A stretch of 45,528 bases of DNA, taken from NCBI GenBank assembly GCA_014730235.1, contig WJIO01000416.1, positions 1-45,528 of the forward strand, in the 5' to 3' direction. Below the pieces are notes generated by a model. It was not told the DNA's origin. It did no database searches and worked only from the letters and a program-made list of their open reading frames with translations. The position numbers and the translations under genes are program-made. The number at the start of each line of letters is the position of its first letter. Position 1 is the first letter of the stretch. Shown piece after piece: positions 4,656 through 25,454 of the stretch. Origin of the DNA: Candidatus Poribacteria bacterium (lineage in GTDB: Bacteria; Poribacteria; DTPJ01; WJIO01).

Positions 4656-4763
4656 GTCATAGTTTGATAACAAATTTACTTTTTTATAGGCATTGAGCCT
4701 TGACAAGGTGTATCATCTGTTATAAAATACTCGATATTAAACGCGTTTTTTATTGTTTTTATT

Positions 4764-4965: not shown

Positions 4966-5016
4966 TTTTATTGAAAATTACTTATTATTCATAAAAAGCA
5001 GGAAGGAGCTTTTTGT

Positions 5017-5655
5017 TTGATTGGTAAAAAAGTGAAACTTCTTATAACTGTAATTGTCATAACCATGATGCTTGCATCATTGGCAGCGGCGGATATTGCG
5101 GTTATATTCGACGAAGACGAAAACGACGAAGCTGGCGATGGTGATTTTGCCAATGTTTTTCCTAATCACGACGCAGGTAGTACCGTTACTGTAACCGACG
5201 ATGATTCTATATCTGGTAGATTCTCAGTATTTTGCACACCGTCTCAGTCATACAATAACGCTATTGCTGGGTGGGCATATCCCATAAGCAATGACGATTA
5301 TCGCTATATAACTTTTGCATGGCGAAAAGACGGTGGAACTGGTATAATGATACAACTTGCTTTTGATACCACATGGGCTTATAGATATTTTAGTGGTGTC
5401 AATGTAACAAATTGGCCGGGAATACAACTTGAAAACGATATTCCAGAAGACTGGATGGTTTATACCCGCGACCTTGTGGAAGATTTTGGAGCCAACTGGA
5501 ATCTAACAGGAGTAGCTTTAACCCCTTGGGATGGAGTTGGTGGTTACTATGATCATATAATACTCCATACCGATGAAGATGAAGGTAAAATTGGTCAATT
5601 TGCGGTAGAATTTAGTGGTAAATTAACCACAACATGGGGGAAAATTAAACATTAG
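5017..5655 (+). CDS. Secreted beta-sandwich-like protein with LTTTWG tail, paralogue A
   Basis: The 212-residue product starts at TTG 5017, placed by the AAGGAG site about 8 bases upstream. A Sec signal peptide (basic start, LLITVIVITMMLASLAAA) is followed by one compact domain. The segment RKDGGTGIMIQLAFDTTWAYRYF...WPGIQLE...EDWMVYTRDLVEDFG...LTGVALTPWDG resembles, from memory, a carbohydrate-binding-like module appended to large planctomycete and verrucomicrobial secreted proteins; here it stands alone. The C-terminus ends KLTTTWGKIKH, a tail shared with the next two genes. It is a tandem paralogue of the following gene, 70 bases away. Function is unknown; glycan binding is a guess. Confidence 0.85.
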   Translation: MIGKKVKLLITVIVITMMLASLAAADIAVIFDEDENDEAGDGDFANVFPNHDAGSTVTVTDDDSISGRFSVFCTPSQSYNNAIAGWAYPISNDDYRYITFAWRKDGGTGIMIQLAFDTTWAYRYFSGVNVTNWPGIQLENDIPEDWMVYTRDLVEDFGANWNLTGVALTPWDGVGGYYDHIILHTDEDEGKIGQFAVEFSGKLTTTWGKIKH

Positions 5656-5725
5656 TTACAAAACAATCGTTACAGAATAAACGATTGTAATTCAACAATT
5701 TATTAAAACCTCAAGGAGGATGTAA

Positions 5726-6337
5726 GTGAAAATATTTTTAAGTACGCTGATTATAACTCTGTTAGTCATTTGCCCTATGGCCTTTGCTGATATGGTAGTC
5801 TTATTTGACGAAAATACCGCATCAGAAGCCGGAGGCGGCGATTTTCCCGCTTTATTCCCCAATCATGATGCAGACAGTGTGGTAGAGATTTCAGAAACCG
5901 AAAGCTTTGCCGGAAGCGTATCTGTTTTAGCTACACCATCCCAGTCATATAATAATATCATTGAGGGATGGGAATTTCCCGTTGATGATTACCCATATCT
6001 GACATTTGCATGGAAAAAAGACGGCGGTACCGGGATAATGGTACAGTTTGCTTTTGACACTACCTGGGCTTACAGATACTACAGCGGCGTCAACGTTACA
6101 GATTGGCCAGGAATTCAACTGGAAGATACTATTCCAGAAGACTGGATGATGTATACCCGAAATCTGGTTGATGATTTTGGCGGCGGATGGAATCTTACAG
6201 GTATAGCATTAACTCCGTGGGATGGTGAAGCAGGCTATTACGATTTCATGATACTTCACAGCGATCCTGAACCACCCACAGCCGTTGAAGCTGAGGACAA
6301 GTTGACCACAACATGGGGTAAGATGAAGAGTAATTAA
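5726..6337 (+). CDS. Secreted beta-sandwich-like protein with LTTTWG tail, paralogue B
   Basis: The 203-residue product starts at GTG 5726 behind an AAGGAGGA site. It has a Sec signal peptide (LIITLLVICPMAFA, then D) and the same domain as the upstream gene, with nearly identical core segments (GGTGIM, FDTTWAYRYYSGVNVT, WPGIQLE, PEDWM, LTPWDG). The N-terminal segments (FDE, NHDA) also match, so the two arose by tandem duplication. It ends KLTTTWGKMKSN. A hairpin with a T-run at 6363-6402 terminates the pair, which probably forms one transcript. Function is unknown; secreted or surface display is inferred from the signal peptide and the shared tail. Confidence 0.85.
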   Translation: MKIFLSTLIITLLVICPMAFADMVVLFDENTASEAGGGDFPALFPNHDADSVVEISETESFAGSVSVLATPSQSYNNIIEGWEFPVDDYPYLTFAWKKDGGTGIMVQFAFDTTWAYRYYSGVNVTDWPGIQLEDTIPEDWMMYTRNLVDDFGGGWNLTGIALTPWDGEAGYYDFMILHSDPEPPTAVEAEDKLTTTWGKMKSN

Positions 6338-8614: not shown

Positions 8615-10429
8615 TTGAATAAAATAAATAAAGCAAAAGTTCTATTGAAAACAAATTTTACTGATTGTAGTATTGATTATGTAGAAGAACCAAATCTGCT
8701 AAGAGACATATATCCTTACGATTCTGTTCCCAGGATACAATTTGATTATAAAATAGTGCCTCTGGATCCAGCAGAAGATATGTTTATAACTGATACCACC
8801 TTTAGAGACGGCCAACAGGCCCGGACTCCTTATACCACAGAACAGGTATTAGATCTTTTCGATTTTCTGAACAGATTAGGTGGCCCTAATGGCATAATAA
8901 GACGATCAGAATTCTTCTTGTATAGCGATCGGGATAAAGAAACTGTCAGGCGTTGTATGGCAAGGGAATATAAATATCCGGAGATAACCGGTTGGATAAG
9001 AGCCACAAAAGGCGATCTTGAACTGGTAAAACAGATGGGCTTGAAAGAGACAGGCCTTCTCATGTCTATATCTGATTACCATGTATTTCTGAAACTTGGC
9101 AAAGACAGAAAACAGGCCACTTATGATTATCTGGAAGTTGTAGATGCCGCTCTGGAAAATAACATAATACCCAGGTGTCACCTTGAAGATATCACCAGGG
9201 CTGATTTCTGTGGTTACGTTATACCCTTTGTCCAGATGCTTATGAAGCGTTCCGACGAAAGCGGTATACCCATCAAGATAAGAGCCTGTGACACCCTGGG
9301 ATACGGTGTTACATATCCCGGCGCAGCCTTACCCCGCAGCGTTCCCAAGATGATGAATGCCCTTATAAACGAAGCCGGTGTTCCTCCAGAAAATCTAGAA
9401 TGGCACGGTCATAACGACTTCCATAAGGTACATATAAACGCCGCCACCGCATGGCTGTATGGTTGTTCTGCCGCCAACGGAACACTTTTAGGTTTTGGTG
9501 AAAGAACGGGCAACCCACCAATTGAAAGCCTTATCATGGAATATATAGGCCTCAAAGGTGAAACAAATGGCATTAACACGTCAGTCATTACAGAAATTGC
9601 AAACTACTTCCAAACTGAATTAAAGACTCGCATACCGGAAAATTATCCATTTGTTGGCTCTGAGTTTAACACCACCAGGGCAGGAATTCATGCTGACGGC
9701 GTCTTAAAAAATCCCGAAATATATACTATTTTCAATACCGGAAAAATCCTGAATCGTCCTGTTGATGTTACCATATCGGACAAATCAGGCCTTGCAGGTG
9801 TGGCATACTGGGTCAACAGCCATCTGGAACTTGAAGGTGATGATAAACTGGACAAGCGTCATCCGGGAGTTGTAAGAATATATGAATGGGTAGAAAATCA
9901 ATATAAAGTAGGCCGGATAACTGGTATTTCATCTGCAGAGATGCTCCTGCAGGCTCGAAAGTTTTTACCTGATTTATTCGAGTCCGATCTGGATAAACTA
10001 AAGCAAAAAGCCAGTGATATTGCCGTTCATCTGGTCGAACAAGTTGCTGAATTGCTTGACATAAGAAGCATGAATAACCAAAAGCAGGAAGCTATAATGC
10101 AAAAACTCATTGATGAAAATCCTTTCATTCAGTGGATTTATATAACTGACCTTAAAGGCAATATGGTAACCCACGTTATCGTGCATCCTGAAGACCAGGC
10201 CAAATATGCCACCGTAAGTGAAAACGACAACTTCTCTGACCGTCCCTGGTTTATTGGCCCCCTTAAAGATGGCAAGGTTCATGTTACCGACTTTTATTCT
10301 TCAAAGTATACTGGTGCTCTTTGTATAACGGTATCCGCTCCTATAAGGAGTCAACTGGAGAAAATAGTCGGTATAATAGGCGTAGACATAAGATTTGAGG
10401 AACTTGTAAAACTCGAAGAACAGGAGTAG
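8615..10429 (+). CDS. Re-citrate synthase-like HMGL-family enzyme fused to a Cache sensor domain
   Basis: The 604-residue product starts at TTG 8615 behind AAAGGAGGA. Residues about 50-380 form an HMGL-like (LeuA/homocitrate synthase type) TIM barrel with TDTTFRDGQQ, a metal-binding WHGHNDFH segment (H264/H266 region) and GFGERTGNPP. The DTTFRDGQQ and LGGPNGIIR features recall the Re-type citrate synthases of anaerobes (acetyl-CoA plus oxaloacetate); homocitrate, citramalate or isopropylmalate synthase are alternatives. The usual LeuA regulatory domain is absent. Instead residues about 480-600 form a Cache/PAS-like ligand-binding fold (WIYITDLKG, SDRPWF, DFYSSKYTGALCITVSAPI, IVGIIGVDI), normally found outside the cell in chemoreceptors. 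There is no signal peptide or membrane segment, so a cytosolic allosteric role is inferred. The aconitase-family gene follows 18 bases later. Confidence 0.75.
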   Translation: MNKINKAKVLLKTNFTDCSIDYVEEPNLLRDIYPYDSVPRIQFDYKIVPLDPAEDMFITDTTFRDGQQARTPYTTEQVLDLFDFLNRLGGPNGIIRRSEFFLYSDRDKETVRRCMAREYKYPEITGWIRATKGDLELVKQMGLKETGLLMSISDYHVFLKLGKDRKQATYDYLEVVDAALENNIIPRCHLEDITRADFCGYVIPFVQMLMKRSDESGIPIKIRACDTLGYGVTYPGAALPRSVPKMMNALINEAGVPPENLEWHGHNDFHKVHINAATAWLYGCSAANGTLLGFGERTGNPPIESLIMEYIGLKGETNGINTSVITEIANYFQTELKTRIPENYPFVGSEFNTTRAGIHADGVLKNPEIYTIFNTGKILNRPVDVTISDKSGLAGVAYWVNSHLELEGDDKLDKRHPGVVRIYEWVENQYKVGRITGISSAEMLLQARKFLPDLFESDLDKLKQKASDIAVHLVEQVAELLDIRSMNNQKQEAIMQKLIDENPFIQWIYITDLKGNMVTHVIVHPEDQAKYATVSENDNFSDRPWFIGPLKDGKVHVTDFYSSKYTGALCITVSAPIRSQLEKIVGIIGVDIRFEELVKLEEQE

Positions 10430-10447
10430 CGAACAGCTAATAAAAAG

Positions 10448-11698
10448 ATGGGCAAAACTATTTCTGAAAAAATAATAGGTGAAAAAGCCGGTAAAGATGT
10501 ATCTGCTGGTGATTTTGTTGTGGCAAACGTTGACCTGTGCCTTCTTCAGGACGGCACAGGTCCCCTGGCCGTAAGAGAACTACAAAAACTGAATATGGAA
10601 AAATTGGCCAATCCGGAAAGAACAGTTATGTTTATTGACCATTCATCCCCAAGCCCCAGGGCAGAATTATCCAACGACCATGTGTTGCTGAGAAATTTCG
10701 CCCGTAAAACCGGCGCGGTTTTATCCGATGTAGGCTGCGGCATTTGCCATCAGGTAATATCAGAGGATCACGTAAATCCCGGCAATATCCTTGTTGGTTC
10801 AGATTCCCATACATGCACCGGCGGCGCTCTGGGTGCTTTTGCCACAGGTATGGGTTCTACAGATGTGGCCATCGCTATGGCCCTGGGTAAAACGTGGCTG
10901 CGTGTTCCTGAAACATTCAAAATCAATGTAACAGGTCAATTCCCCCAGGGCGTATATCCTAAGGACTTAATACTACACATAATCGGCATGATAGGTGCTG
11001 ATGGGGCCACATATAAAGCCCTGGAATTCTGTGGTGAAATCATCGAAAACATGGGAATGTCAGGCCGTCTAACTCTATGCAATATGGCAGTAGAAGCCGG
11101 TGCAAAAACCGGCATGGTTGAATCTGACGACATAACAAGAGATTATCTCAAAGATCGGGGAAGACCAGAAAAGTTCCGTCCTGTTTTTGCCGATCCTGAC
11201 GCCGTATATGAAAGAACAATCGATATAGATGTCAGTAAATTAACGCCTATTGTAGCCTTTCCCCACACAGTTGACAACACAAAATCCGTTGAAGAAGCGG
11301 AAGATATTAAAGTCCAGCAGGTGTTTATCGGCTCATGTACCAACTGCCGCCTGCAGGATTTAAGAATTACTGCAGATATATTGAAGGGAAAGGAAAAGCA
11401 CCCGGATGTAAGGTTACTGGTAACACCCGCATCCAAAGACGTATACCTGAAGGCCAGCAAAGAGGGAATCCTTGACATTCTGGTAGAAGCCGGAGCCGCC
11501 ATAAGCTCCCCCGGATGCGCCGTATGCTGTGGTATACATGAGGGAATCCTGGCCGACGATGAAGCATGTATATCAACGTCCAACAGAAATTTTTTAGGCC
11601 GTATGGGAAATCCCAAATCCTATGTCTATCTGGCATCACCAGCCACAGCAGCAGTTAGCGCATTAACAGGCAAAATAACTGATCCGAGAAAAATCTAA
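10448..11698 (+). CDS. Aconitase/isopropylmalate dehydratase-family large subunit
   Basis: The 416-residue length matches the two-subunit LeuC/HacA type, not the roughly 750-900-residue single-chain aconitases. Cluster-ligand cysteines are C297 (GSCTNCR) and C357/C360 (SPGCAVCCG), expected to hold a [4Fe-4S] cluster. GSDSHTCTGG and the substrate-site segments are intact. The family dehydrates and rehydrates 2- or 3-hydroxy tricarboxylates. Coupling to the preceding synthase suggests that it processes that enzyme's product (citrate to isocitrate, or a homologue). The swivelling small subunit (LeuD type) needed for activity is not in the window after this gene. The Shine-Dalgarno site is weak, so translation may be coupled to the upstream gene. 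Confidence 0.88.
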   Translation: MGKTISEKIIGEKAGKDVSAGDFVVANVDLCLLQDGTGPLAVRELQKLNMEKLANPERTVMFIDHSSPSPRAELSNDHVLLRNFARKTGAVLSDVGCGICHQVISEDHVNPGNILVGSDSHTCTGGALGAFATGMGSTDVAIAMALGKTWLRVPETFKINVTGQFPQGVYPKDLILHIIGMIGADGATYKALEFCGEIIENMGMSGRLTLCNMAVEAGAKTGMVESDDITRDYLKDRGRPEKFRPVFADPDAVYERTIDIDVSKLTPIVAFPHTVDNTKSVEEAEDIKVQQVFIGSCTNCRLQDLRITADILKGKEKHPDVRLLVTPASKDVYLKASKEGILDILVEAGAAISSPGCAVCCGIHEGILADDEACISTSNRNFLGRMGNPKSYVYLASPATAAVSALTGKITDPRKI

Positions 11699-11741: not shown

Positions 11742-11899
11742 GGACATAATTTAGTTGTCATTCCTGCGAAAGCAGGAATCCAGTCTCCCAGGATAGTATT
11801 TTTTCTGGATTCCTGCTTTCGCAGGAATGATAGATTTTGTAATTTACCATAATCATAAAGGTATTTTCTAAACACATTTTTCATTTTTTAACGATTACT
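11742..11899. repeat. Dispersed palindromic element, copy 4 (family 2 arms, long core)
   Basis: The left inner arm GGACATAATTTAGTT is identical to that of the copy at 25454, but the outer left end is lost. The core is the long double-hairpin form from 11757 to about 11832. The right arm (AAAGGTATTTTCTAAACAC, then TTTTTAACGATTACT) is family 2. The element fills the gap between the aconitase-family gene and the second kinase. Confidence 0.82.
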
Positions 11900-11928
11900 T
11901 AACATATTCCGTTAAACAGTAAATCATA

Positions 11929-13359
11929 ATGCGCCTGCAATGGAAATACACACTGATAATAAACAGCTTTATCCTCCTGACCATGACGATCTTCTTCCTG
12001 ATAAACGACAGAATGGTCAAGCAGGAAAGCGTTTTGTCAGTTATCAGAGATTATCTGAAAGGCGCAACCATGAGGGATATAGCCAGCAGGATACAGGAAC
12101 GAATTTCCGGCGAAAACGATCCTGAAAGACTGGCAAAGATCATAAGAACTCTGGATTTAACCGAAAAGCTAAGAGAAGCGGATTTAGAGATAGTAGACAT
12201 AAATGTCACTGATTCCAACGGCATTGTAATTGCCAGTCTCACTGAAAAAAATCTGGATAACAAAATTGACGAGGAAGGTCTGCAAAGGATATACTCCAAA
12301 CAAATGCGCCTGCGGTATCCGCCCAAGGGTTATTACGGTCGTTGGGTCGTGGAATATACCTTGCCGTATATAAGGTTCAGCCAGTACGAATACGAGGAAC
12401 TAGGTGCGCTTCAAATCATGTTCTCAGCCCGGGGCATTGCCAGCTACACCCGGCAGTTGCGCATGAGAAATCTGCTGTCCATAACCCTGATAGCGGTAAC
12501 ACTGACTATTTTCATTATACCCCTCACCAGCTACCTTATTGTCCGCCGTTTGGAACGATTAATGGAGACAATATCTACTGTCCAGTCCGGGGATCTGGGG
12601 GCCAGGTCTGAGGAGTCATCAAACGATGAGATAGGTCGTCTGAGTAAGAGTTTCAACAGGATGATCGATCAGATAAATTCCGAACACGCCAGCAGATTAG
12701 AAGCCCTGGGTAATCTGGCTGCCGGCGTTGCTCATGAAGTCCGTAATCCCCTCAATTCCATTGCCATGACCATACAATACCTGAAGGATACGATAGAGGA
12801 TCAACCTGAGTCCGAAGCCCAGGAATGTCTGGATGTTATCACCCGTCAGGTGGAGGAACTGGATCGGATTGTGGAAGATTTCCTCCAATTGACCCGGCCT
12901 ATTGAAATGAACTGGCAGACTGTAGACCTGAAAGGCTTTTTATCCGATATAATGCGAAATTTCGTTTCATCAATGGAAATAGCCAACATTAAGTTGACTT
13001 GTAACTACTCCAGTGATATTATATATGTCAGGATCGATCCTGACAAGATAAGACAGGCCGTATCCAATATCGTCATTAACAGCATTCAGGCCATGCCAGA
13101 AGGTGGCAAATTGACTGTCACCACGGAAAAAAACGACGTTCAGAAAAACGCTGTTATAAAAATAACCGATACAGGTCCTGGCATACCAGAGGAAAATAAA
13201 GACAGGCTTTTCGAACCATATTTCACAACAAAACCCGACGGCACAGGATTGGGTTTGGCCATTACATATAGAATGATAGATGCCCATGAAGGGGAAATCG
13301 GAGTAGAAAGCCAGATAAACAGGGGAACTACTTTTACTATAATTTTGCCCTATTCATAA
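11929..13359 (+). CDS. NtrB-like membrane sensor histidine kinase
   Basis: The 476-residue kinase has a membrane segment at about 9-24, an extracytoplasmic sensor of about 155 residues, and a second membrane segment near 184-207 (ITLIAVTLTIFIIPLTSYLIV). HAMP follows (VQSGDLGARSEESSNDEIGRLSKSFN in part), then HisKA with H269 (GVAHEVRNPLNS) and HATPase motifs NIVINSIQAM, DTGPGI and GTGLGLAI. The sensor has no recognised fold and differs from that of the 1864 kinase. No good Shine-Dalgarno site precedes ATG 11929. The stop lies 6 bases before the next start, so it forms an operon with the response regulator. Confidence 0.92.
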   Translation: MRLQWKYTLIINSFILLTMTIFFLINDRMVKQESVLSVIRDYLKGATMRDIASRIQERISGENDPERLAKIIRTLDLTEKLREADLEIVDINVTDSNGIVIASLTEKNLDNKIDEEGLQRIYSKQMRLRYPPKGYYGRWVVEYTLPYIRFSQYEYEELGALQIMFSARGIASYTRQLRMRNLLSITLIAVTLTIFIIPLTSYLIVRRLERLMETISTVQSGDLGARSEESSNDEIGRLSKSFNRMIDQINSEHASRLEALGNLAAGVAHEVRNPLNSIAMTIQYLKDTIEDQPESEAQECLDVITRQVEELDRIVEDFLQLTRPIEMNWQTVDLKGFLSDIMRNFVSSMEIANIKLTCNYSSDIIYVRIDPDKIRQAVSNIVINSIQAMPEGGKLTVTTEKNDVQKNAVIKITDTGPGIPEENKDRLFEPYFTTKPDGTGLGLAITYRMIDAHEGEIGVESQINRGTTFTIILPYS

Positions 13360-13365
13360 TAATGG

Positions 13366-14790
13366 ATGAACTTCCCGGTGATTACTGATAACAAAATGAA
13401 ACCAAGAATCCTTGTAGTAGATGACGAAGAAACTCAACGAAGGATGCTCCAGAAAATCCTGATAAGGGAAGACTATGAGGTTCAAACCGCATCCGGTGGA
13501 AAAGACGCTCTGGAAAAATTCAAAGAAAAAAATGCCGATGTGGTCGTAACCGATGTCAGGATGCCCGATATGGACGGTTTACAGCTTTTTAGGGAGATAA
13601 AGAAGATAAACGAGGATTCATCCGTTATACTCATAACCGCCTATGGAAACCTCTCATCCGCCGTTGAAGCCATGGCTAACGGTGCATCTTATTACCTTGA
13701 AAAGCCTTTAACCCCTCTAAAAATAGACCATCTAAAGGTGCTGATAAAAAAAGCAATACAAAACAAGGAAATCCTGGAAGAAAATAAACGATTGAGGGAG
13801 GAAGTAAGGGATAAATACGGTTTTGGAAGCATCGTAGGTCACAGCGAGAAAATGCAGGAGATATACGCAGACTTGAAGAAAGTGGCTGAGTCAGACGTTA
13901 CTGTCCTGCTTTTAGGTGAAACCGGCACAGGTAAAGAGTTAGCCGCCCGGGCAATTCATTACAACAGTTCCCGAAAGAGATATCCCTTCAGAAAAGTAAG
14001 CTGCGCATCTTCTCCCGAAACTCTATTGGAAAGCACCCTCTTTGGCCACGAAAAAGGAGCATATACAGGTGCTGACAGCCGACAGATCGGTATGTTTGAA
14101 AGCGCAGACAAAGGTACTATATTCCTTGACGAAATTGGCGAAATCAACCAGAGCGTCCAGATAAAACTACTTCGATTCCTACAGGAAAAAAAGCTTGAAA
14201 GGGTTGGGGGTACTCAGACTATTCAGGTCGATGCCAGGGTAATAGCCGCAACAAATGTGGATCTGGAAGAAGCTGTAAAACAAAATAAATTCAGAAAGGA
14301 CTTATATTACCGACTTAACGTAGTTTCCATATCTATGCCTCCTCTGAGAGAAAGAAAAGAGGATATCCCACTGCTGGTAGATCACTTTTTGGAAAAATAT
14401 AAAGACAAAAACAACGGTAAAATCAAGCAATTATCTCAGGAGGCTTTGTTATTGCTTAAATCCCACACATGGCCCGGAAATGTAAGGGAACTGGAAAACT
14501 GCATAGAAAGGGCTATTGTCATGGGTGAAAATAATATAATAAAACCCTCGGATCTTCCCTCAGAATTACAGGACTATAGCCAGTTAAACACCGATGATGA
14601 AAAAATAATAAGAGACATACCAACTGACGGTGTATCTCTGGATGATATTGAGAGGGATTTAATCATAAAAGCCTTGAAAAAAACCGGAGGAAATCAAACT
14701 GAAGCTGCAAAAATACTGGGAATAACCCGTCGCCAGCTTCAATACAGAATGGGAGAAAAATACTACATTTCACCTGAAGAATATACATAA
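13366..14790 (+). CDS. NtrC-like sigma-54-dependent response regulator
   Basis: The 474-residue regulator may instead start at Met11 (13396), where the receiver domain begins MKPRILVVDDEE. The receiver has phospho-acceptor D63 (VVTDVRMPD). The AAA+ domain has Walker A GETGTGKE, the contact loop GAYTGA (tyrosine variant of GAFTGA), Walker B IFLDEIGE and the GNVRELEN segment. The C-terminal Fis-type helix-turn-helix is NQTEAAKILGITRRQLQYRM. It is the partner of the kinase immediately upstream. It is similar to, but clearly diverged from, the regulator at 3264, so this is a second independent pathway. Confidence 0.93.
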   Translation: MNFPVITDNKMKPRILVVDDEETQRRMLQKILIREDYEVQTASGGKDALEKFKEKNADVVVTDVRMPDMDGLQLFREIKKINEDSSVILITAYGNLSSAVEAMANGASYYLEKPLTPLKIDHLKVLIKKAIQNKEILEENKRLREEVRDKYGFGSIVGHSEKMQEIYADLKKVAESDVTVLLLGETGTGKELAARAIHYNSSRKRYPFRKVSCASSPETLLESTLFGHEKGAYTGADSRQIGMFESADKGTIFLDEIGEINQSVQIKLLRFLQEKKLERVGGTQTIQVDARVIAATNVDLEEAVKQNKFRKDLYYRLNVVSISMPPLRERKEDIPLLVDHFLEKYKDKNNGKIKQLSQEALLLLKSHTWPGNVRELENCIERAIVMGENNIIKPSDLPSELQDYSQLNTDDEKIIRDIPTDGVSLDDIERDLIIKALKKTGGNQTEAAKILGITRRQLQYRMGEKYYISPEEYT

Positions 14791-14848
14791 TATCAGCAAT
14801 CTTGCAATTCGGTTAGTATCTGTCTCAATTTAGTAGGTTGAAATTTTT

Positions 14849-15052
14849 GTTCTTCCGGGTTTGGTACGGTAAAGACAAGAAACTTCTTTATGCTGTCATT
14901 CCTGCGAAACTCTTATTCCTTTTTGCTCAAGATTTTTCCAAAAGCTTAAAGCAGGAATCCAGAAGCCTAACATTATGACTGTATTCCTGATTTTGCAGAA
15001 ATGGCAAAATGAGAGAGTTTTTAATTATAACCACACCAAACCCGGAAGAAAC
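14849..15052. repeat. Dispersed palindromic element, copy 5 (family 1 arms, disrupted core)
   Basis: Intact family 1 ends in inverted orientation (GTTCTTCCGGGTTTGGTACGG left; mirrored CCACACCAAACCCGGAAGAAAC right). The order of inner arms is opposite to copies 2 and 3, so the element sits in reverse orientation. The core hairpin is broken by about 36 extra bases including CTCTTATTCCTTTTTGCTC, also found in the copy at 22700. The right half of the core has decayed (GTATTCCTGATTTTGCAGAA). Nothing else is seen in this gap. Confidence 0.8.
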
Positions 15053-15084
15053 AAGTATCATAAACAAGGAGCAGACAAATTAAC

Positions 15085-17766: not shown

Positions 17767-17865
17767 TATTAAATTATAATATAAGAAAAAAGCGTACCCT
17801 TGCAGTCTGATCATTCTATATTAAATTAGCGGAGTGTTTTATAAGTTTGTTTTTAACAGACGGAC

Positions 17866-18030
17866 TTAACCGCCATAATTTGTATAGCTTGTAGCGCAAC
17901 ATGCCGAAAGCGTTTTTGTTGCGCTGGGATTATTTACTACATCTACATCGTCAAGGTCAGAGTTATCATCACCAAACAAACAGTCAAGAATATCTTCCAG
18001 AATTCTTGAGTAGTCAAAAAACGATAGCAT
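17866..18030 (-). CDS. Candidate RiPP precursor peptide (54 residues, C-terminal CCATSYTNYGG)
   Basis: ATG (18030-18028) follows an AGGAGAG site by 4 bases, and TAA ends at 17866. The peptide has an amphipathic start (MLSFFDYSRILEDILDCLFG), an acidic stretch (GDDNSDLDDVDVV) and a Ser/Thr/Cys/Tyr-rich end: NNPSATKTLS, then ACCATSYTNYGG. This leader-plus-core layout is typical of ribosomally made, post-translationally modified peptides. The likely core holds adjacent C44 and C45, Y49 and Y52, several Thr/Ser and a terminal Gly-Gly. It lies 113 bases downstream of the HTH-binding-protein gene in the same strand as a radical SAM/SPASM maturase and a glycosyltransferase. A promoter, a leader hairpin and a trailer with a T-run support expression as a separate, abundant transcript. 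I recognise no named family. No protease or exporter gene is adjacent. Confidence 0.75.
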   Translation of the reverse strand: MLSFFDYSRILEDILDCLFGDDNSDLDDVDVVNNPSATKTLSACCATSYTNYGG

Positions 18031-18041
18031 GTCTCTCTCCT

Positions 18042-18060
18042 TTTACCACTTACTGGTAAA
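18042..18060 (-). promoter_or_regulatory. Leader hairpin or operator before the precursor gene
   Basis: TTTACC and GGTAAA form an inverted repeat with a 7-base spacer. On the minus-strand mRNA the second arm directly abuts the AGGAGAG ribosome binding site, so the hairpin could modulate translation of the precursor; as DNA it could be a small operator. Confidence 0.4.
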
Positions 18061-18097
18061 TTGAGACTGCAAAAGGTACGCATAATTTAAAGCATAA

Positions 18098-18126
18098 TTA
18101 ATAGTAATTGCTATTGTTTTTCTCAA
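18098..18126 (-). promoter_or_regulatory. Promoter of the precursor peptide gene
   Basis: Reading the minus strand: TTGAGA (18126-18121), a 17-base spacer, TATTAA (18103-18098). Predicted start is near 18091, giving a transcript of about 305 bases to the T-run at 17786. A 13-base sequence CAGAATTCTTGAG (18134-18122) overlaps the -35 box and recurs in inverted orientation at 17998-18010 inside the gene, suggesting paired operators. Confidence 0.5.
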
Positions 18127-18143
18127 GAATTCTGTTTCATTCC

Positions 18144-20054
18144 TTAAAACACTACCCTTACCTTTTGCTTTTCATCTGAAACCGAATCTATTTCTTCGTC
18201 GTTAGTTATTATTTCCCAGTCTTTTGAAGCTGTCAGAAAGCTTAAAATCGAAGATATGTAAGTCTTGTCAAGTATGTAGTTGCTGCTAATAAATTCGTTT
18301 CCCGTAAATAAAAATATAGCCGGATAATCGTCATGAATTATTTCATGTATTTTTTGATACTTTTCCTTCCTCTTTTCCAGATCAACTTCGCTCCTCGCTT
18401 CATCAAAATACTTGTCAACCTGACTGTTATTGTAAGATGTCACGTTGAGTTGAGAGTCTGAATACCATATTCTATAAGCATAATCCGGATCCGCACCAAA
18501 AGGTATTTTAAATAAAGAACATTGGCAATCTGTCTTTTGAAGTTCTGTATACTCCGTATATATTATATCAACTTTTACCCCAAGTTTCATAAGCTGAGCT
18601 TTTATAGCAATAGCAATACGTTGCATTATATCCGAAGAGGTAGTTACATTAACAGATAACTCAAATAACTTACCGTTCTTTTTCAAAAAGCCGTCGTTGT
18701 AATCGTATTCCCATCCAGTTTGTTCTATTAAACGACGGGCGTTCTCAAGTTTATAAGGGGTTGGTTGCACAGAATTGTTATAAGCCCATGAATCCAGGCT
18801 AAAAGGTCCGGTACATATATCCCCATGTCCCTTAAGCTGTGTATTAATAATGGATTCCCGATCAATAGCATAATCTAAAGCTATGCGAACTCTTAAATCC
18901 CTGAGCATAGGATCCCGGGTATTAAGAAAAAGGGCATAATAAGCCTCACCAGATGACGAATAAACCCGAAATTTACCTTTGCTGTTTAAAAATAAAAGAT
19001 CAGGAGCAGCAAGATCAAGAGCTATATCAATATCGCCCTTTCTTATGCTGTTTACAGCTTCTTTACGATCCGGATAGTGTTTAAATTCCAGGTTATCAAG
19101 GATCGGTCTTCCTGGTTCATAATAATCACGATTGGCCTCAAGTGTTATAGTATCATCTTTATCCCAACCGGAAAATTTAAATGGGCCTGAGCCTATAGGA
19201 TAATGGTTATATGGTGTTTTCCAGAAATCCTCACCTTCAAGAAGGTGTTTGGGTGCTATCGGCCAATCAAGACGATGGGCAAGGGGGGCAAATGGATATT
19301 TTAGATGTATTATAAAAGTATATTTATCGGGTGTTTCCATACGGTCAATCAACACATATCGCTCTAGTAATTGTGACTTATTAGCAGGATCCATAATACT
19401 TCTGAAAGTAAATTCCACATCATGTGATGTCAGTGGATGACCATCATGAAAATACACATCATCTCGAAGGTAAAAAGTCCACCTTAAACCATCTTTGGAT
19501 ACTTTCCATTCTTTACAAGCATCTCCCACTGGTTTATCAAGACCATCAGTATCCAGAAGACTGCTATATAACAGATTCATTATAGTTGCTGATATGGTAT
19601 CGCTGGTTAAAATCGGATTAATAATACTGGGCTTACTGCTGTGACCTATAATTAATTCTCCGCCCCGATTTTTTGCTTTTGCACCTTTAGATAAAATTCT
19701 TATCATTCCAAAAAACTTCTCCGAAGGTATGTTCTGATCTATTAATTTCAGCAGCTTTTCACCATAATTTTTGATATTATCATCCTCACAGTATTTCATA
19801 CCCTTTGAGATCAAATATCGGGCTGCGCGAAGGCTGTCCAGGTCTATTTCTCTGAAAAGATCATAGCTATCGTCCAGAAGTCGATAACCTTGACCATCAA
19901 AGCGAATGGGTATTCCTGAATTAGCCAGTGTGTTAATATACCGATAAACCCCTCGTTCACTTACATCGCATAGTTTTGACAGTTCCCCGGCTGTAAGGCT
20001 TGGATATTCCTGAACATAACGTAATAGATCAAACAGCTTCTCCGATTTCGTCAC
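18144..20054 (-). CDS. Cytoplasmic HTH-(peptide-binding protein) fusion regulator
   Basis: The 636-residue product starts at GTG 20054 with AGAGGTG upstream. Residues 1-60 are a winged helix-turn-helix (LSKLCDVSERGVYRYINTLANSGIPI, DGQGYRLL) of the HTH_11/DeoR type. Residues about 125-610 are a family 5 ABC solute-binding domain of the DppA/OppA kind (LRWTFYLRDDVYFHDGHPLTSHDVEFTF, VRIALDYAIDRESI). There is no signal peptide or lipobox, so it stays in the cytoplasm, like SgrR, in which such a domain senses a small ligand. Because the domain family binds peptides or sugars, the ligand may be the modified peptide or a breakdown product (inference). It lies 28 bases after the maturase stop, in one operon with it, and next to operator-like repeats. 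Confidence 0.88.
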   Translation of the reverse strand: MTKSEKLFDLLRYVQEYPSLTAGELSKLCDVSERGVYRYINTLANSGIPIRFDGQGYRLLDDSYDLFREIDLDSLRAARYLISKGMKYCEDDNIKNYGEKLLKLIDQNIPSEKFFGMIRILSKGAKAKNRGGELIIGHSSKPSIINPILTSDTISATIMNLLYSSLLDTDGLDKPVGDACKEWKVSKDGLRWTFYLRDDVYFHDGHPLTSHDVEFTFRSIMDPANKSQLLERYVLIDRMETPDKYTFIIHLKYPFAPLAHRLDWPIAPKHLLEGEDFWKTPYNHYPIGSGPFKFSGWDKDDTITLEANRDYYEPGRPILDNLEFKHYPDRKEAVNSIRKGDIDIALDLAAPDLLFLNSKGKFRVYSSSGEAYYALFLNTRDPMLRDLRVRIALDYAIDRESIINTQLKGHGDICTGPFSLDSWAYNNSVQPTPYKLENARRLIEQTGWEYDYNDGFLKKNGKLFELSVNVTTSSDIMQRIAIAIKAQLMKLGVKVDIIYTEYTELQKTDCQCSLFKIPFGADPDYAYRIWYSDSQLNVTSYNNSQVDKYFDEARSEVDLEKRKEKYQKIHEIIHDDYPAIFLFTGNEFISSNYILDKTYISSILSFLTASKDWEIITNDEEIDSVSDEKQKVRVVF

Positions 20055-20082
20055 TTTAGCACCTCTCTGCCGCCTACTCCTC

Positions 20083-21393
20083 CTATTTAATCCTTGATAA
20101 TAGTTTCATCTTCAATGTTTCCGAAATAGATCTTTCTATAAAATCCATCTCACATATTAACTTACTCATATCACCATATTTTACATATGCTGCATGTTTA
20201 CATCCTCCATCACAATATGGCATATAAGCACACTTAAAACATTCTTCGGGAACTTCAATTCCTATCAAATCCTCATGTCTTTGGCTTAATTCCTGGCTGT
20301 ATACATCCCCAACCTCAAATCCTTCTCTTCCCACAAAAGCAGGACATGTATACATCCTACCCACTGGATCTATAACCAGAACCGTACCATCCCGGTTCAT
20401 ACTGCATACAGTATAATTTGCATTTGTATCAACATTAAAACCCCTGTTAAGGGCTTCCCACTTCAGTTTTACCAGGTCTTCCTTAGCCCAGTCTTCCGAA
20501 GCTGACACACAATCCGCTTGCTTCGTTGGCTTCAGTTCTCCGTATTGGTTTTCAATGTTCACTATCGGGCTGAAATTTATTTGCTCAATTTTTTCCTTTA
20601 AACCTATTTCATCCAGGTAATCCAGCATTCGTGGAACACTTTCAAGGTTTTCTTTATCAATATTTACGCCTATTTTTATTCCCACCTCATCCGAAACCTG
20701 AATAAGATTTTTAACTATCCTATCAAATGAGCCTTTACCATTCTTATATGGCCTCTTCTTATCATGAGCTTCTTTATCTCCGTCAAGGGTAACTTTTACA
20801 CTCTTTAGTCCCAGGGGTGTAAGCCGCTCCATCAATTCAGGCTTCAAAAGCGAACCGTTGGTGGTTATAGTAAAAATAAAGGACAGCCTATTCTGGTCAC
20901 AATACTCATGTAACCTGGAAGCTATATATTCGATCGGCCGGGGGTTCATCAATGGTTCCCCGCCGTAAAATAAAAGAACTATCTTTTCTGTATTATTCAG
21001 TTCTGCTCTTTCTACAAACCAGTCAACAACAGCTTGGGAACATTCATCATCCATTCTTATTGAAGTCTTAACACCCTCTTCTACACAGTATTCACAGGCA
21101 AAGTTGCAGTCATAGGTGGTTAAAACAGTAGCTCTTAGTATCGAAGTATCTCTCCTGGCCTTATCGTACCAATCTTTTAATTCCCCGGCTTCATCAGCCG
21201 ATTCATCCACAATAAAGCCCAATTCTGTAAATTTATCAATATATTTTTGTTCTTCCTTATCGGGATTTTCAGGTAAATTATTTAATATATTTCTGGATTT
21301 TTCACCTATTACAGCCGTTGCCTGATTAAAAGTGTTAAATACCAGGTATTTTTTACCCAGAGGAACAAAAATTGTAAACTGCGATAATTTCAA
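20083..21393 (-). CDS. Radical SAM/SPASM peptide maturase
   Basis: The 436-residue enzyme starts at TTG 21393, overlapping the glycosyltransferase stop (TTGA). Residues 1-70 are a PqqD/RRE-like segment that may bind the precursor leader. The radical SAM cluster motif is C96-X3-C100-X2-C103 (DCNFACEYC), followed by the GGEP-type motif FYGGEPLMNP. The C-terminal SPASM domain matches the consensus exactly: C330-X14-G-X4-C350, then C385-X2-C388-X5-C394-X3-C398, then C414, seven cysteines for two auxiliary [4Fe-4S] clusters. The family makes thioether, C-C or other crosslinks in peptides, or formylglycine in sulfatases. No sulfatase gene is in the window, while the 54-residue peptide at 17866 lies downstream, so peptide modification is favoured. 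Which bond it makes cannot be read from sequence. Confidence 0.92.
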   Translation of the reverse strand: MKLSQFTIFVPLGKKYLVFNTFNQATAVIGEKSRNILNNLPENPDKEEQKYIDKFTELGFIVDESADEAGELKDWYDKARRDTSILRATVLTTYDCNFACEYCVEEGVKTSIRMDDECSQAVVDWFVERAELNNTEKIVLLFYGGEPLMNPRPIEYIASRLHEYCDQNRLSFIFTITTNGSLLKPELMERLTPLGLKSVKVTLDGDKEAHDKKRPYKNGKGSFDRIVKNLIQVSDEVGIKIGVNIDKENLESVPRMLDYLDEIGLKEKIEQINFSPIVNIENQYGELKPTKQADCVSASEDWAKEDLVKLKWEALNRGFNVDTNANYTVCSMNRDGTVLVIDPVGRMYTCPAFVGREGFEVGDVYSQELSQRHEDLIGIEVPEECFKCAYMPYCDGGCKHAAYVKYGDMSKLICEMDFIERSISETLKMKLLSRIK

Positions 21394-22481
21394 AATCCCT
21401 CTCCCTTGATAATAGCCATTGTCATATCCATAAGTTCGTCGTACTCCTCAAAAGAATCCCGTCGAACTTGGCCCCAGGCTTCTTCATCTTCAGGATCAGT
21501 TGCCTCAAATCTTTCAGTTATATCCAGAGCTTTCAAAGCTAGTTCATGCAAACCATTATTGCTGTTGCTCGAAATTTGCTTGAAGCAATCCACCGCTGTC
21601 TCATAGCGACCTATTCTCCGCAAAAGTATACCAAGCCAGAAAGGATGTATCATGTTATTAGGTTCCATCTGCGCCGCTGTATAAAATTCCTTGCCAGCTT
21701 CCTTAAAAATTTCATGGCTAAGAAATATTGCTCCCCTGACATCGTGAGCATGAGGAACAGAATTAAGTTCCGGAAACATTTCTTCTATGGAAATATCATC
21801 CATCGCCTCTTTGATAAAACCTCGAATATCATTTGTAACCTTTTTCCTGGATTCCTTCCCGCTTCGATTCTCGTCATGTCTTCTATACATGGCTAAAGGC
21901 TTATCTATGGCTTTCATCGGGTAGCATCTGGCTATCCTGATCCACATATCGTAATCCTGGGCGTAGGTGTTTTTATAAAGCCCTACTTTATCATAGCATT
22001 CTTTTCTGACCATCACAGTTGGCTGACTAAATATACAATGTCTAAGCATGGTAATAAGGCCGCCGTGCTTTGAAAAATCCGGCACAGATTTAGTATGCAG
22101 TATATTACCCTCTGTGTCAATGATATGATGTCCGCTGGCTACCAGGCCAACGTCTGGATTCTCCTGGAATACCCCTACCTGAATTTCAACCTTTTCAGGC
22201 ATAAAAAGGTCATCATCATCAACCCTTGCTATATATTCACCGGTGGATTCTTCTATACCCCGATTCACCGCCGAACCCGGTCCACCGTTTTGTTTGTAAA
22301 TGTATCTTATTTTATCCCGGTAGGATTCTATTACTTCTTCGGTATTATCTGTAGAGCCATCATTTACAACGATTAATTCAACATCACTGTAAGTTTGATT
22401 GAGAACACTTTCGATTGTCTCTGGCAGCCACCTGGGACGGTTATAAGTAGGAATTATAACACTAACCCGTCCATTCTCCAT
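21390..22481 (-). CDS. Family 2 glycosyltransferase with TPR-like tail
   Basis: I place the start at ATG 22481 (behind AAAAGGTG), giving 363 residues; an in-frame TTG at 22517 has no ribosome binding site. The N-terminal GT-A domain (residues 1-220) has VSVIIPTYNRPRWLPETI, IVVNDGSTDNTEE and the nucleotide-sugar/metal motif VDDDD. The C-terminal part has TPR-like helices (HPFWLGILLRRIGRYETAVDCFKQI in part). There are no membrane segments, so it acts in the cytosol. It is the first gene of the operon and is translationally coupled to the radical SAM gene. Some GT2 enzymes glycosylate RiPPs (SunS-type glycocin S-glycosyltransferases), so the precursor peptide is a candidate acceptor. A surface-polysaccharide role is possible but no such cluster is nearby. 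Confidence 0.88.
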   Translation of the reverse strand: MENGRVSVIIPTYNRPRWLPETIESVLNQTYSDVELIVVNDGSTDNTEEVIESYRDKIRYIYKQNGGPGSAVNRGIEESTGEYIARVDDDDLFMPEKVEIQVGVFQENPDVGLVASGHHIIDTEGNILHTKSVPDFSKHGGLITMLRHCIFSQPTVMVRKECYDKVGLYKNTYAQDYDMWIRIARCYPMKAIDKPLAMYRRHDENRSGKESRKKVTNDIRGFIKEAMDDISIEEMFPELNSVPHAHDVRGAIFLSHEIFKEAGKEFYTAAQMEPNNMIHPFWLGILLRRIGRYETAVDCFKQISSNSNNGLHELALKALDITERFEATDPEDEEAWGQVRRDSFEEYDELMDMTMAIIKGEGF

Positions 22482-22558
22482 TTTATACACCTTTTCAATA
22501 TGAATTTCTGAAGACAAATCATATCAAACTAAATACCAATATACCCTTATTTGTCTAT

Positions 22559-22587
22559 ATTATATCATAGTTGACAAGATTTGTCAC
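22559..22587 (-). promoter_or_regulatory. Promoter and embedded operator of the glycosyltransferase-maturase operon
   Basis: Minus strand: GTGACA (22587-22582), a 17-base spacer, perfect TATAAT (22564-22559). The perfect palindrome TGACAA-ATC-TTGTCA (22586-22572) spans the -35 box and the spacer, where a bound repressor would block polymerase. Further GACAAAT/ATTTGTC half-sites occur just downstream. Confidence 0.6.
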
Positions 22588-23009: not shown

Positions 23010-24317
23010 TTGAAAAATGTAATGATAACTTTAATAATTTTACTAATACTGTTACCCAAAAGCCTGCCAGCCCAGGTTCAGATGGTAACCCGTCCAGATA
23101 GCGAAGGTGTAGAGCTTACAATCTACAACAGCAGGGATTTAACCCTCGTCAAAGAGCAAAGAAACATAACCCTGAAAAGCGGTTTGAATCTCCTGCAATT
23201 TAGCTGGGTTGACACCCTGATCGATCCAACATCCATCCATCTGGACGTGGCCGACACAGATATTGGCGTTGAAGTCCAATCGGCCATATATCCGCCAAAG
23301 CTGTCCAACACCATACAATGGTATGTAAAATCCGAAAACGCCGGAGAAAAAAAATTGGAAGTATCCTATTTCACCAGCGGATTAACATGGAGCGCAAACT
23401 ACATAGCCATTATGGATAAAAGCGAGGAAAAAATGTCTCTGGAAGCCCTGGTGAATATATCCAACAACAGCGGCGAAGACTACGAAAACGCCCATACTCG
23501 TCTTATTGTAGGAGAAATCCAGCTAGTTGAGGAAGTAAGAACCTTGGCCGCTGGTAGGGCAGTAGAAAAATCAGCAAAAAAAGCCGAAGACAGGGAAACA
23601 GAACTGCGTCGAAGAGCCAGGGGAGCGGCCGTAGCAACCACCGATACTGCTTTTGATCTCTATGCAGCCAAAGCACCCGCCGTTGCCGAAACCCAGACCC
23701 TGTCCGAATATTACATGTATGTGTTGGAAGGGCGAGACACCATAAAGCACGAATGGCAAAAGCGCAAGTTATCCTTCGTAATTGAGGATATACCAGTTAA
23801 AACAGTCCACAGGTTCGGCGAACATGGTCAGAGGGTAGCCCGTTTTTACCAGTTCAAAAATGATGAGGAACACAATTTGGGCACAGAACCAATGCCAGAA
23901 GGCAATGTTGTAGTTTTCATAAAAGACGAAAATAACACCATCTCTTCTTATGTAGGCCAAACCTGGATTGAATTCACTCCTACAGGAAAAGAAGTAAAGC
24001 TGTATCTCGGTCCGGATCCCGAAGTAAAAGTTGAAAAAAAGCAGATGAGTAACAGAAGGGTAAATCTGTTGTTTGACGAAAAAAACAGAAGCCTTGTTAA
24101 GTTCGATACCGAACGTGAATTTACCTTCGAGATAGAAAATTTCAAAACCGAAAGCGTTAATCTGGAAATAAAGGAAAATCTGGGCAGAGATTGGCAGATA
24201 CTGTCCTCAACTCATGACTACGAAAAAAAAGACGCAAATTCTATAGAATTCAAGCTGGAACTGGATGCAGACAGTAAGGAAACGCTAAAGTATCAGGTTA
24301 GATTTATGGGAAGATAA
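23010..24317 (+). CDS. Secreted DUF4139-like protein, paralogue A
   Basis: The 435-residue product starts at TTG 23010 behind AAGGAGGT. A Sec signal peptide (VMITLIILLILLPKSLPA, then Q) is followed by a beta-rich protein. ELTIYNSRDLTLVKEQR, LNLLQFSWVDTLIDPTSI, VSYFTSGLTWSANY and SLEALVNISNNSGEDYENA match the DUF4139/mucoidy-inhibitor-A-like family as I remember it. A charged helical insert sits near residues 180-225 (RAVEKSAKKAEDRETELRRR). The C-terminal region has LGPDPEVKVEKKQ and ends KYQVRFMGR. Function is unknown; cell-envelope location is inferred. The next gene, 15 bases on, is a paralogue. Confidence 0.8.
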   Translation: MKNVMITLIILLILLPKSLPAQVQMVTRPDSEGVELTIYNSRDLTLVKEQRNITLKSGLNLLQFSWVDTLIDPTSIHLDVADTDIGVEVQSAIYPPKLSNTIQWYVKSENAGEKKLEVSYFTSGLTWSANYIAIMDKSEEKMSLEALVNISNNSGEDYENAHTRLIVGEIQLVEEVRTLAAGRAVEKSAKKAEDRETELRRRARGAAVATTDTAFDLYAAKAPAVAETQTLSEYYMYVLEGRDTIKHEWQKRKLSFVIEDIPVKTVHRFGEHGQRVARFYQFKNDEEHNLGTEPMPEGNVVVFIKDENNTISSYVGQTWIEFTPTGKEVKLYLGPDPEVKVEKKQMSNRRVNLLFDEKNRSLVKFDTEREFTFEIENFKTESVNLEIKENLGRDWQILSSTHDYEKKDANSIEFKLELDADSKETLKYQVRFMGR

Positions 24318-24332
24318 GGAGGGATAATAAAA

Positions 24333-25454
24333 ATGAAGCCAACACAAAAAGCAAAAACGAGAAATTTTTTAGGTATAGCCATCATATTAATCCTGCTAAC
24401 AACAGCAACTATAAATGCCCGGATAGAATTGGTTACAGTGCCTGAGCGCGAAAGCATATCCATAAGTATAGACAGAAACAACAGCGCGCTGGTTCAGGAA
24501 TTACGCACAGTAACAGTCAAAGAGGGTGAAAACGTGGCCCAGTTCGACTGGTCGAATATAGACATAGACATGAACACAGTTCAACTCCAGGTGCTTGAAG
24601 GTGAAGACTCAGTAACTTTTGGCTCTATGTCCATACCCCCGGGGTCAAAAAACGCTTTGATGTGGGATATCCAGAGCCAGAAGTCTATGGAGCTACCTGT
24701 CCGGGTGTCCTATAAAGTCAATGGTATATACTGGAACTGTAATTATACAGCCCTGGTAAACGACGATGAAACGTCCCTGAGTTTACAGGCTGATGTAACC
24801 GTCAGCAACCAAACTCAGGATCAATACGAAAACGCGAACATAAATCTGGAAGTGGGCGAAACTTTCCAGCAATCTCTGGAAAGCAATGAATCAAAAAAGA
24901 TAACACTATTCAACATGCCCCAAATACCTGTCCAGAAGACTTACACCTCTGATCCTGATAAATTCGGTAAAAACGTAGCAATACATTACAAGTTTAAAAA
25001 CACCAGAAAAGAAATGCTTTTGGCTGGAAAGATTAGGATATACAAAAAGGATAAAAGCGGCAGTAGAGCCTTCCTGGGTGAAGACAGAATTGAATTTATC
25101 CCCGCAGGCGGCGAAGTTGACCTTTACACCGGCAGCGCCCGGGATGTGGAAGTCGAAAGGGCCGTAATTGAACAGCGTCAGGTAAACATCAGGAGAGACG
25201 TAAGGGGAAATATATCAGTATACGATACAGACGAATCCTACAAAGCTACAATCAAAAATCACAAAAATGACTCAGCAAAGGTTATAGTCCGTATACATCT
25301 AAACGACTTCTGGGAAAATCCAGAGTCAAAACATGAATACAAAAAAGAAAACGTCAATATTCTGGAATTTAACGTCCAGGTAGAACCAGGCGAAGAAGAA
25401 GTAATAAATCTGGATATTTCGGGCAAAAACCTTACTCAGGGTTTTATATTCTAA
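24333..25454 (+). CDS. Secreted DUF4139-like protein, paralogue B
   Basis: The 373-residue product starts at ATG behind AAGGAGGG. A hydrophobic signal segment (LGIAIILILLTTATINA) is followed by the same family features as paralogue A (ISIDRNNSALVQELRTVTVKEG, VSYKVNGIYWNCNYTALV, SLQADVTVSNQTQDQYENAN, YTGSARDVEVERAVIEQRQV). It lacks the charged insert and is about 60 residues shorter. Tandem duplication followed by divergence is likely. The stop codon overlaps the first base of a palindromic element (25454). Function is unknown. Confidence 0.8.
   Translation: MKPTQKAKTRNFLGIAIILILLTTATINARIELVTVPERESISISIDRNNSALVQELRTVTVKEGENVAQFDWSNIDIDMNTVQLQVLEGEDSVTFGSMSIPPGSKNALMWDIQSQKSMELPVRVSYKVNGIYWNCNYTALVNDDETSLSLQADVTVSNQTQDQYENANINLEVGETFQQSLESNESKKITLFNMPQIPVQKTYTSDPDKFGKNVAIHYKFKNTRKEMLLAGKIRIYKKDKSGSRAFLGEDRIEFIPAGGEVDLYTGSARDVEVERAVIEQRQVNIRRDVRGNISVYDTDESYKATIKNHKNDSAKVIVRIHLNDFWENPESKHEYKKENVNILEFNVQVEPGEEEVINLDISGKNLTQGFIF

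What the first reader, a model, noticed from the sequence alone, without database searches (positions are those of the whole stretch)
17786..22587. Candidate new RiPP system: glycosyltransferase, radical SAM/SPASM maturase, HTH-binding-protein sensor and a 54-residue precursor
Seen: a minus-strand set of GT2 enzyme, SPASM maturase with all seven auxiliary-cluster cysteines and the CX3CX2C motif, a cytoplasmic HTH/solute-binding fusion, and a short gene with a strong ribosome binding site coding a leader-like peptide that ends ACCATSYTNYGG. Known: SPASM enzymes crosslink peptides; some GT2 enzymes glycosylate RiPPs. Inference: the peptide is crosslinked at C44/C45 or Y49/Y52 and perhaps glycosylated on Ser/Thr/Cys, and the fusion regulator senses the product. 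I know of no described class combining these four parts.
Basis: partly seen in the sequence, partly recalled or inferred. Interest (0 to 1): 0.92.

Follow-up and report, generated by a model that had tools for sequence, protein, structure and literature searches.

The report
Sugar-linked radical-SAM peptide gene cassette
A little-studied bacterium carries a four-gene set that very probably makes a small ribosomal peptide, reshapes its end with a radical enzyme, possibly adds a sugar and senses it with a regulator; related sets occur in three other genomes of its phylum, so this looks like a new family of modified peptides, not yet tested by chemistry.

Summary
The window encodes, on the minus strand, a GT2 glycosyltransferase, a radical SAM/SPASM enzyme, a cytoplasmic helix-turn-helix/solute-binding fusion and a 54-residue peptide. 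The peptide is a real gene: an unbiased search finds a 43%-identical paralogue in the same genome (E=1.2e-4), ending CCCTYSYATYGG, on another contig beside a 48%-identical copy of the fusion regulator. Three other genomes of the phylum with the enzyme each have one small ORF with a strong ribosome site and the same C-SYxxY motif within about 2 kb of it. The GT2 subfamily occurs at full length in exactly those four of 84 genomes, and all four have the fusion regulator. A second phylum (Latescibacterota) keeps a binding-protein/small-ORF/radical-SAM arrangement. The enzyme is nearest the 'geopeptide' maturases (below cut-off) and, in structures, CteB, a thioether-forming enzyme. In one genome the operon also carries NDP-sugar genes, supporting glycosylation. 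Crosslink position, sugar attachment and what the regulator senses are inferred. Verdict: genuine, undescribed RiPP family; new variant of a known kind.

The parts
17866..18030 (-). 54-aa precursor peptide MLSFFDYSRILEDILDCLFGDDNSDLDDVDVVNNPSATKTLSACCATSYTNYGG; acidic leader, C-terminal core CC-SYxxY-GG
   Evidence: homologous peptides in same genome (L073:12743-12892) and in G028, G063, G064; strong ribosome site; codon-level conservation
18144..20054 (-). cytoplasmic HTH_11 / family-5 solute-binding-protein fusion, probable peptide-sensing regulator
   Evidence: HTH_11, SBP_bac_5; best solved relative: oligopeptide-binding AppA 1xoc, 1.8e-59; fusions in all four genomes
20083..21393 (-). radical SAM/SPASM peptide maturase with N-terminal winged-helix-like region (probable leader-binding domain)
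21390..22481 (-). GT2 glycosyltransferase (GT-A domain plus about 150-aa C-terminal region), translationally coupled to the maturase
22559..22587 (-). candidate sigma-70 promoter of the cassette (GTGACA-17-TATAAT, extended -10)
   Evidence: consensus match only
18036..18066 (-). imperfect inverted repeat (TTTACCA-GTAAG-TGGTAAA core) at the precursor's ribosome site; possible operator or leader hairpin; not shared with the paralogue
   Evidence: function not tested

Best explanation
This is a RiPP biosynthesis cassette of an undescribed family. SHOWN by comparison: a conserved small peptide gene is tied to a SPASM-type radical SAM enzyme, a specific GT2 subfamily and a cytoplasmic HTH/solute-binding fusion. 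INFERRED: the peptide's acidic leader docks on the enzyme's N-terminal winged-helix region; the enzyme then uses SAM to make a radical in the C-terminal core (CC-SYxxY) and forms a crosslink, most likely a thioether from the conserved Cys (as CteB and PapB relatives do), with Tyr-based C-C or ether crosslinking the alternative. The GT2 then adds a sugar to the core, most likely on the invariant Ser or Tyr. The finished or trimmed peptide is bound in the cell by the oligopeptide-binding domain of the fusion protein, which adjusts expression of the cassette and of the second, unlinked peptide locus. No exporter or protease is encoded beside it. My probabilities: peptide is the enzyme's substrate 0.9; Cys thioether 0.5; glycosylation of the peptide 0.55; fusion senses the product or precursor 0.45.
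For: Peptide paralogue in the same genome found without using the motif (E=1.2e-4), next to a 48%-identical fusion regulator. One C-SYxxY small ORF with ribosome site near the enzyme (near the fusion at the paralogous locus) in each of five loci, against 0.007-0.02 expected. GT2-enzyme-fusion adjacency in G000, G028 and G064; in G063, where the genes lie on separate contigs, all three and the peptide are still present. Full-length GT2 subfamily in exactly the four enzyme-bearing genomes of 84. G028 operon continues with epimerase, GHMP sugar kinase, nucleotidyltransferase and GNAT genes, gaps -110 to +83 bp. Enzyme nearest geopeptide maturase and other peptide-maturase models and CteB by sequence and fold (5wgg 3e-35; 5why 2.8e-15). 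Binding domain nearest oligopeptide-binding proteins. Latescibacterota G098: SBP_5 gene - small ORF with AGGAGGG site - enzyme.
Against: No chemistry. Peptides outside this genome share only the short core motif and leader acidity; their homology is inferred from position, ribosome site and motif. Cys count varies (CC, or GC in G064). G028/G063/G064 enzymes lack the last SPASM cysteine. No protease or exporter is linked. The GT2 could serve another substrate; sugar genes are linked in one genome only. Fusion regulators also occur without the enzyme (G000 C269, G028 C145), so their tie to the product is weaker. The G098 small ORF lacks the SYxxY motif. AlphaFold models are low-confidence (mean pLDDT 60 and 52).
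Confidence: 0.68

Rival explanations
1. The peptide is made and crosslinked by the radical SAM enzyme, but the GT2 acts on a separate cell-surface or lipid acceptor and is only a genomic neighbour.
For: GT2 enzymes usually build polysaccharides; best named models are TuaG and EpsE; it is not a SunS-type peptide glycosyltransferase (no match of this gene to TIGR04195); TPR-like signal in its C-terminal region is weak.
Against: Overlap of stop and start codons with the enzyme; exact co-occurrence of this GT2 subfamily with the enzyme, also in G063 where they are unlinked.
Confidence: 0.3
2. A mycofactocin/PQQ-like cofactor pathway: the peptide's C-terminal residues are turned into a small glycosylated redox cofactor rather than a peptide product.
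For: Mycofactocin shares the parts list SPASM enzyme + GT2 + short peptide with a C-terminal Tyr (PMC7491314).
Against: No MftB, MftD, MftE-like genes beside it; enzyme scores 69 bits against 265 for MftC and GT2 48.6 against 280 for MftF; the peptide ends YGG or runs on for 13-16 residues after SYxxY in relatives.
Confidence: 0.07
3. The enzyme is an anaerobic sulfatase maturase and the small ORF is incidental.
For: Shares the SPASM fold; anSME structures are among the matches.
Against: 97.8 bits against a cut-off of 349; conserved peptide beside it in several genomes; no sulfatase domain in the neighbouring proteins scanned.
Confidence: 0.03
4. The fusion protein is a general nutrient or metal sensor (SgrR-like) unrelated to the peptide product.
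For: Matches nickel- and dipeptide-binding models as well; paralogues exist away from the enzyme.
Against: Present in all four enzyme genomes; its paralogue in C269 sits beside the second peptide gene; a family-5 binding protein also adjoins the enzyme in Latescibacterota G098.
Confidence: 0.4

Closest known systems
Geopeptide radical SAM maturase family (NCBIfam TIGR04280)
   Same: Best family match of every enzyme examined, over full length (319 bits for the window, 190-293 for relatives); small peptide substrates
   Different: All below the 400-bit cut-off; precursors match no NCBIfam family; GT2 and HTH/binding-protein fusion partners; I could not retrieve a geopeptide precursor for comparison and found no paper on geopeptides
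CteB / PapB (sactipeptide-ranthipeptide maturases, Cys thioether formation)
   Same: Closest solved structure by sequence and fold (CteB 5wgg/5why); PapB model 163 bits; Cys in every core
   Different: PapB and SCIFF cut-offs not reached; substrates are CC-SYxxY, not Cys-rich or Cys/Asp repeats; GT2 partner
Mycofactocin (MftA/MftC/MftF)
   Same: Short peptide with functional Tyr near the C-terminus, SPASM radical SAM enzyme and GT2 glycosyltransferase (PMC7491314)
   Different: Enzyme and GT2 far below the MftC and MftF cut-offs; no MftB/D/E; different core; different regulator type
Glycocins with SunS-type GT2 (sublancin and relatives)
   Same: GT2 acting on a ribosomal peptide (from general knowledge)
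   Different: This GT2 does not match the SunS model; glycocins lack a radical SAM enzyme (general knowledge)
SgrR-type regulators
   Same: N-terminal HTH fused to a family-5 solute-binding domain, no signal peptide
   Different: SgrR model 36.7 bits against 476; HTH type differs even among the relatives here (HTH_11, HTH_3)

Membership tests
RiPP biosynthesis cassette (general) | short conserved gene encoding a precursor with leader and core | tested here: met
RiPP biosynthesis cassette (general) | modifying enzyme of a known RiPP-maturase type linked to the precursor | tested here: met
RiPP biosynthesis cassette (general) | observed post-translational modification of the peptide | not testable with these tools
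   needs expression and mass spectrometry
Geopeptide maturase TIGR04280 | score above curated cut-off of 400 bits | tested here: not met
   319 bits; 190-293 for relatives
Ranthipeptide/sactipeptide | maturase scores above PapB / SCIFF / other curated cut-offs | tested here: not met
   PapB 163 vs 340; SCIFF 121 vs 425
Ranthipeptide/sactipeptide | Cys thioether crosslink in product | not testable with these tools
   Cys present in all cores; bond unknown
Radical SAM/SPASM | CX3CX2C and seven auxiliary-cluster Cys | tested here: met
   C96/100/103 and C330, 350, 385, 388, 394, 398, 414; relatives in G028, G063, G064 lack the last one
Mycofactocin | MftC and MftF equivalogue scores; mftB/D/E present | tested here: not met
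   69 vs 265 and 48.6 vs 280 bits; neighbours scanned are unrelated
SunS-type peptide S-glycosyltransferase | match to TIGR04195 | tested here: not met
   window GT2 not among matches at E<=1e-3
Anaerobic sulfatase maturase | score above TIGR03942 cut-off | tested here: not met
   97.8 vs 349 bits
SgrR regulator | score above NF010149 cut-off | tested here: not met
   36.7 vs 476 bits; architecture alone is similar

The most novel reading that the evidence does not exclude
A new class of RiPP in which a radical SAM enzyme crosslinks a CC-SYxxY core, a dedicated GT2 glycosylates it, and a cytoplasmic oligopeptide-binding domain fused to a DNA-binding domain reads out the finished product, so that the peptide acts as an intracellular signal or cofactor rather than a secreted antibiotic.
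Probability: 0.25. Interest if true: 0.82.

Novelty: new variant of a known kind. Interest (0 to 1): 0.62.

Why it matters
It would add a crosslinked and glycosylated peptide family from uncultured phyla, with a ready testable core (CC-SYxxY). The missing exporter and the intracellular binding-protein/DNA-binding fusion raise the question whether some RiPPs act inside the producing cell, and the fusion gives a direct biochemical handle (does it bind the modified peptide?).

Tried and rejected
Sulfatase maturase: rejected by scores and by the conserved peptide. Mycofactocin membership: rejected by scores and missing genes. SunS-type glycosyltransferase: rejected. TPR domain on the GT2: only sub-threshold, not claimed. 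Known RNA elements: none. Shared operator: the inverted repeat before the precursor is not found before the paralogue. Terminal YGG as family signature: rejected. Second enzyme for the unlinked peptide on C269: none found; next-best radical SAM protein in the genome is at E=3.6e-21, so one enzyme may serve both. Viral contigs gave only distant radical SAM proteins; plasmids likewise, best 27-28% identity. A GT4-linked radical SAM in G016 (L038) is a different system. Structure models were of low confidence and used only for fold class. Literature on geopeptides: none in the library; HTH/binding-protein fusions: nothing useful.
Full report
1. What is there. From the cassette's start: GT2 glycosyltransferase 21390-22481 (PF00535, 6.5e-41), radical SAM/SPASM enzyme 20083-21393, HTH_11/SBP_bac_5 fusion 18144-20054, peptide 17866-18030. 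GT2 and enzyme overlap by the bases TTGA. The enzyme has C96-X3-C100-X2-C103 and all seven SPASM cysteines. The fusion starts with the DNA-binding domain and has no signal peptide, so it is cytoplasmic. A sigma-70-like site with extended -10 (11 of 12 matches) lies at 22587-22559. GC content is that of the surroundings, and no Rfam element overlaps.

2. Is the peptide real? Yes. A search of the window's own genome with the 54 residues gave, besides itself, one significant match: C269:23245-23391, 43% identity, E=1.2e-4. That peptide, MFFNFMDLDVVLKSLFNDEESDEVVVLKDGTSAPCSLSCCCTYSYATYGG, has a GGAGGAG ribosome site and lies about 1 kb after a 48%-identical full-length copy of the HTH/solute-binding fusion, which had been found independently. 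Over 50 aligned codons the differences at positions 1/2/3 are 20/15/31, dN 0.54 and dS 1.54; seven of 22 identical residues use different codons, among them Ser TCG against AGC; the coding frame scores 112 (BLOSUM62) against at most 48 in any other frame; the alignment score is 84 against a shuffled maximum of 32 in 2000.

3. Does it recur? The window enzyme alone, searched against 84 genomes of the phylum, gave three others at E<=1e-40: G028, G063, G064, 28-30% identity. Each has a small ORF with a strong ribosome site carrying the same core: G028 ...LLCCSYHNYVNAIEADWEEDSNV (before the GT2), G063 ...TGCCSYVFYPTNAVKPVEYDDINE (before the enzyme), G064 ...LLGCSYDFYVLLVEPILDEEGD (after the enzyme). 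For a 30-70 aa ATG ORF with C(x0-3)SYxxY the expectation per locus is 0.007-0.02 in dinucleotide shuffles, and no shuffle in 300 gave one with a ribosome site; each of five loci has exactly one. The motif was defined after seeing the peptides, so these figures are descriptive; the paralogue search is the independent evidence. Invariant residues across the five peptides: Met1, a Cys (C44 or C45 of the window peptide depending on alignment), S48, Y49, Y52. The terminal YGG is confined to this genome.

4. Partners. GT2, enzyme and fusion are neighbours in the window, G028 (L037: 11702-12835, 10123-11472, 8455-10062, all minus) and G064 (L042: 7062-8309, 8374-9762 plus; 10010-11665 minus). A GT2 profile made from these three found, at full length, only one further genome of the phylum: G063, the fourth enzyme-bearing genome, although its GT2 is on another contig. 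G063 also has the fusion, on a third contig, with an XRE-like HTH (L117); the wider phylum was searched for the fusion only with the window protein, which found no other full-length fusion than the C269 copy. If all four GT2 genomes were independent draws the chance of the exact overlap would be 5e-7; since the profile was built from three of them, the fair figure is about 1 in 81 for G063 falling where it did. The HTH type varies (HTH_11 in the window and C269, HTH_3 in G064) while the binding domain is kept. In G028 the operon runs on through GNAT (62 bits to dTDP-4-amino-sugar acyltransferase), zinc alcohol dehydrogenase, NAD-sugar epimerase (galE-like), GHMP kinase (heptose kinase-like), NDP-sugar nucleotidyltransferase (rmlA-like) and a PLP enzyme, with gaps of -110 to +83 bp: an activated-sugar pathway beside the GT2. 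G028 also holds a decayed second cassette on C129 (truncated enzyme plus fusion).

5. A second phylum. The only match in the species-genome collection was Latescibacterota L036 (36-38% identity, cut by the contig end). A search of that phylum found G098: a family-5 binding protein gene (here apparently a lipoprotein, with frameshifts), a 42-aa ORF with an AGGAGGG site, MKLVVVKKCAKKWTSAKAEETGRCCILIEGTFWPCFEIGLNG, then the enzyme, then sensor-kinase genes as in L036. The peptide there has CC and aromatic residues but not SYxxY; I treat it as a candidate.

6. What kind of enzyme. Best NCBIfam match of all enzymes: TIGR04280 geopeptide maturase (window 319 bits, relatives 190-293; cut-off 400), then other peptide maturases; sulfatase maturase far below. 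Best solved relative: CteB, thioether-forming (5wgg 3e-35; 5why fold match 2.8e-15). The model, of modest confidence (pLDDT 60), shows two strands, helices and a strand in residues 7-63, compatible with the winged-helix leader-binding domain of such enzymes. PapB-type enzymes link Cys to Asp/Glu carbons (PMC9413430). From this a Cys-based crosslink is the first guess; the invariant Ser-Tyr-x-x-Tyr leaves Tyr chemistry open.

7. What the other parts may do. The GT2 keeps the DDDD metal-binding stretch and the AQDYxxWxR motif in all three. It is not a SunS-type enzyme. Glycosylation of the peptide rests on coupling, co-occurrence and the G028 sugar genes. The binding domain is nearest oligopeptide-binding proteins (AppA 1.8e-59); its place next to both peptide genes of this genome suggests that it senses the peptide. 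No exporter or peptidase is linked in any locus, which is a gap in the model.

8. Known or new. RiPP membership in the broad sense is met by gene content; no narrower family is met (see membership table). What is new here is the precursor family, the subfamily of enzyme, and the fusion regulator. I rate it a new variant of a known kind, with chemistry unproven. The host phylum is not named by the tools.

Noticed in passing
L088 (G098:C3), about 9626-9628, minus strand: The Latescibacterota enzyme has an in-frame TGA exactly at the codon of the invariant first SPASM cysteine (C330 in the window protein), followed about 30 nt later by a stable hairpin with a G in the loop (z -2.4). It could be selenocysteine, but the assembly lacks a selA match while sister G084 has one, and the neighbouring gene carries TGA, TAG and a frameshift, so sequencing error or decay is likelier.
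   Followed up: partly
L118 (G028:C129:179000-190000), 3551-5919, minus strand: A decayed second cassette: N- and C-terminal remnants of the radical SAM enzyme with the middle deleted, next to an intact HTH/binding-protein fusion.
   Followed up: partly
L073 (G000:C269) 12015-12446: A stand-alone 143-aa HTH_PafC/HTH_11 protein lies between the fusion paralogue and the second peptide gene.
   Followed up: no
L038 (G016:C15) 11855-15069: A radical SAM/SPASM enzyme directly followed by a 556-aa protein that looks like a GT4 glycosyltransferase, another possible radical SAM-glycosyltransferase pair in the same phylum.
   Followed up: no
window 35642-42877: A 2411-aa minus-strand ORF with a single recognised bacterial Ig domain.
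   Followed up: no
window 23010-25454: Two tandem DUF4139 proteins next to the cassette on the opposite strand.
   Followed up: no
L036 and L088: In Latescibacterota the enzyme is followed in both genomes by a membrane sensor kinase and a receiver-kinase protein, a second link between this enzyme and sensing genes.
   Followed up: no
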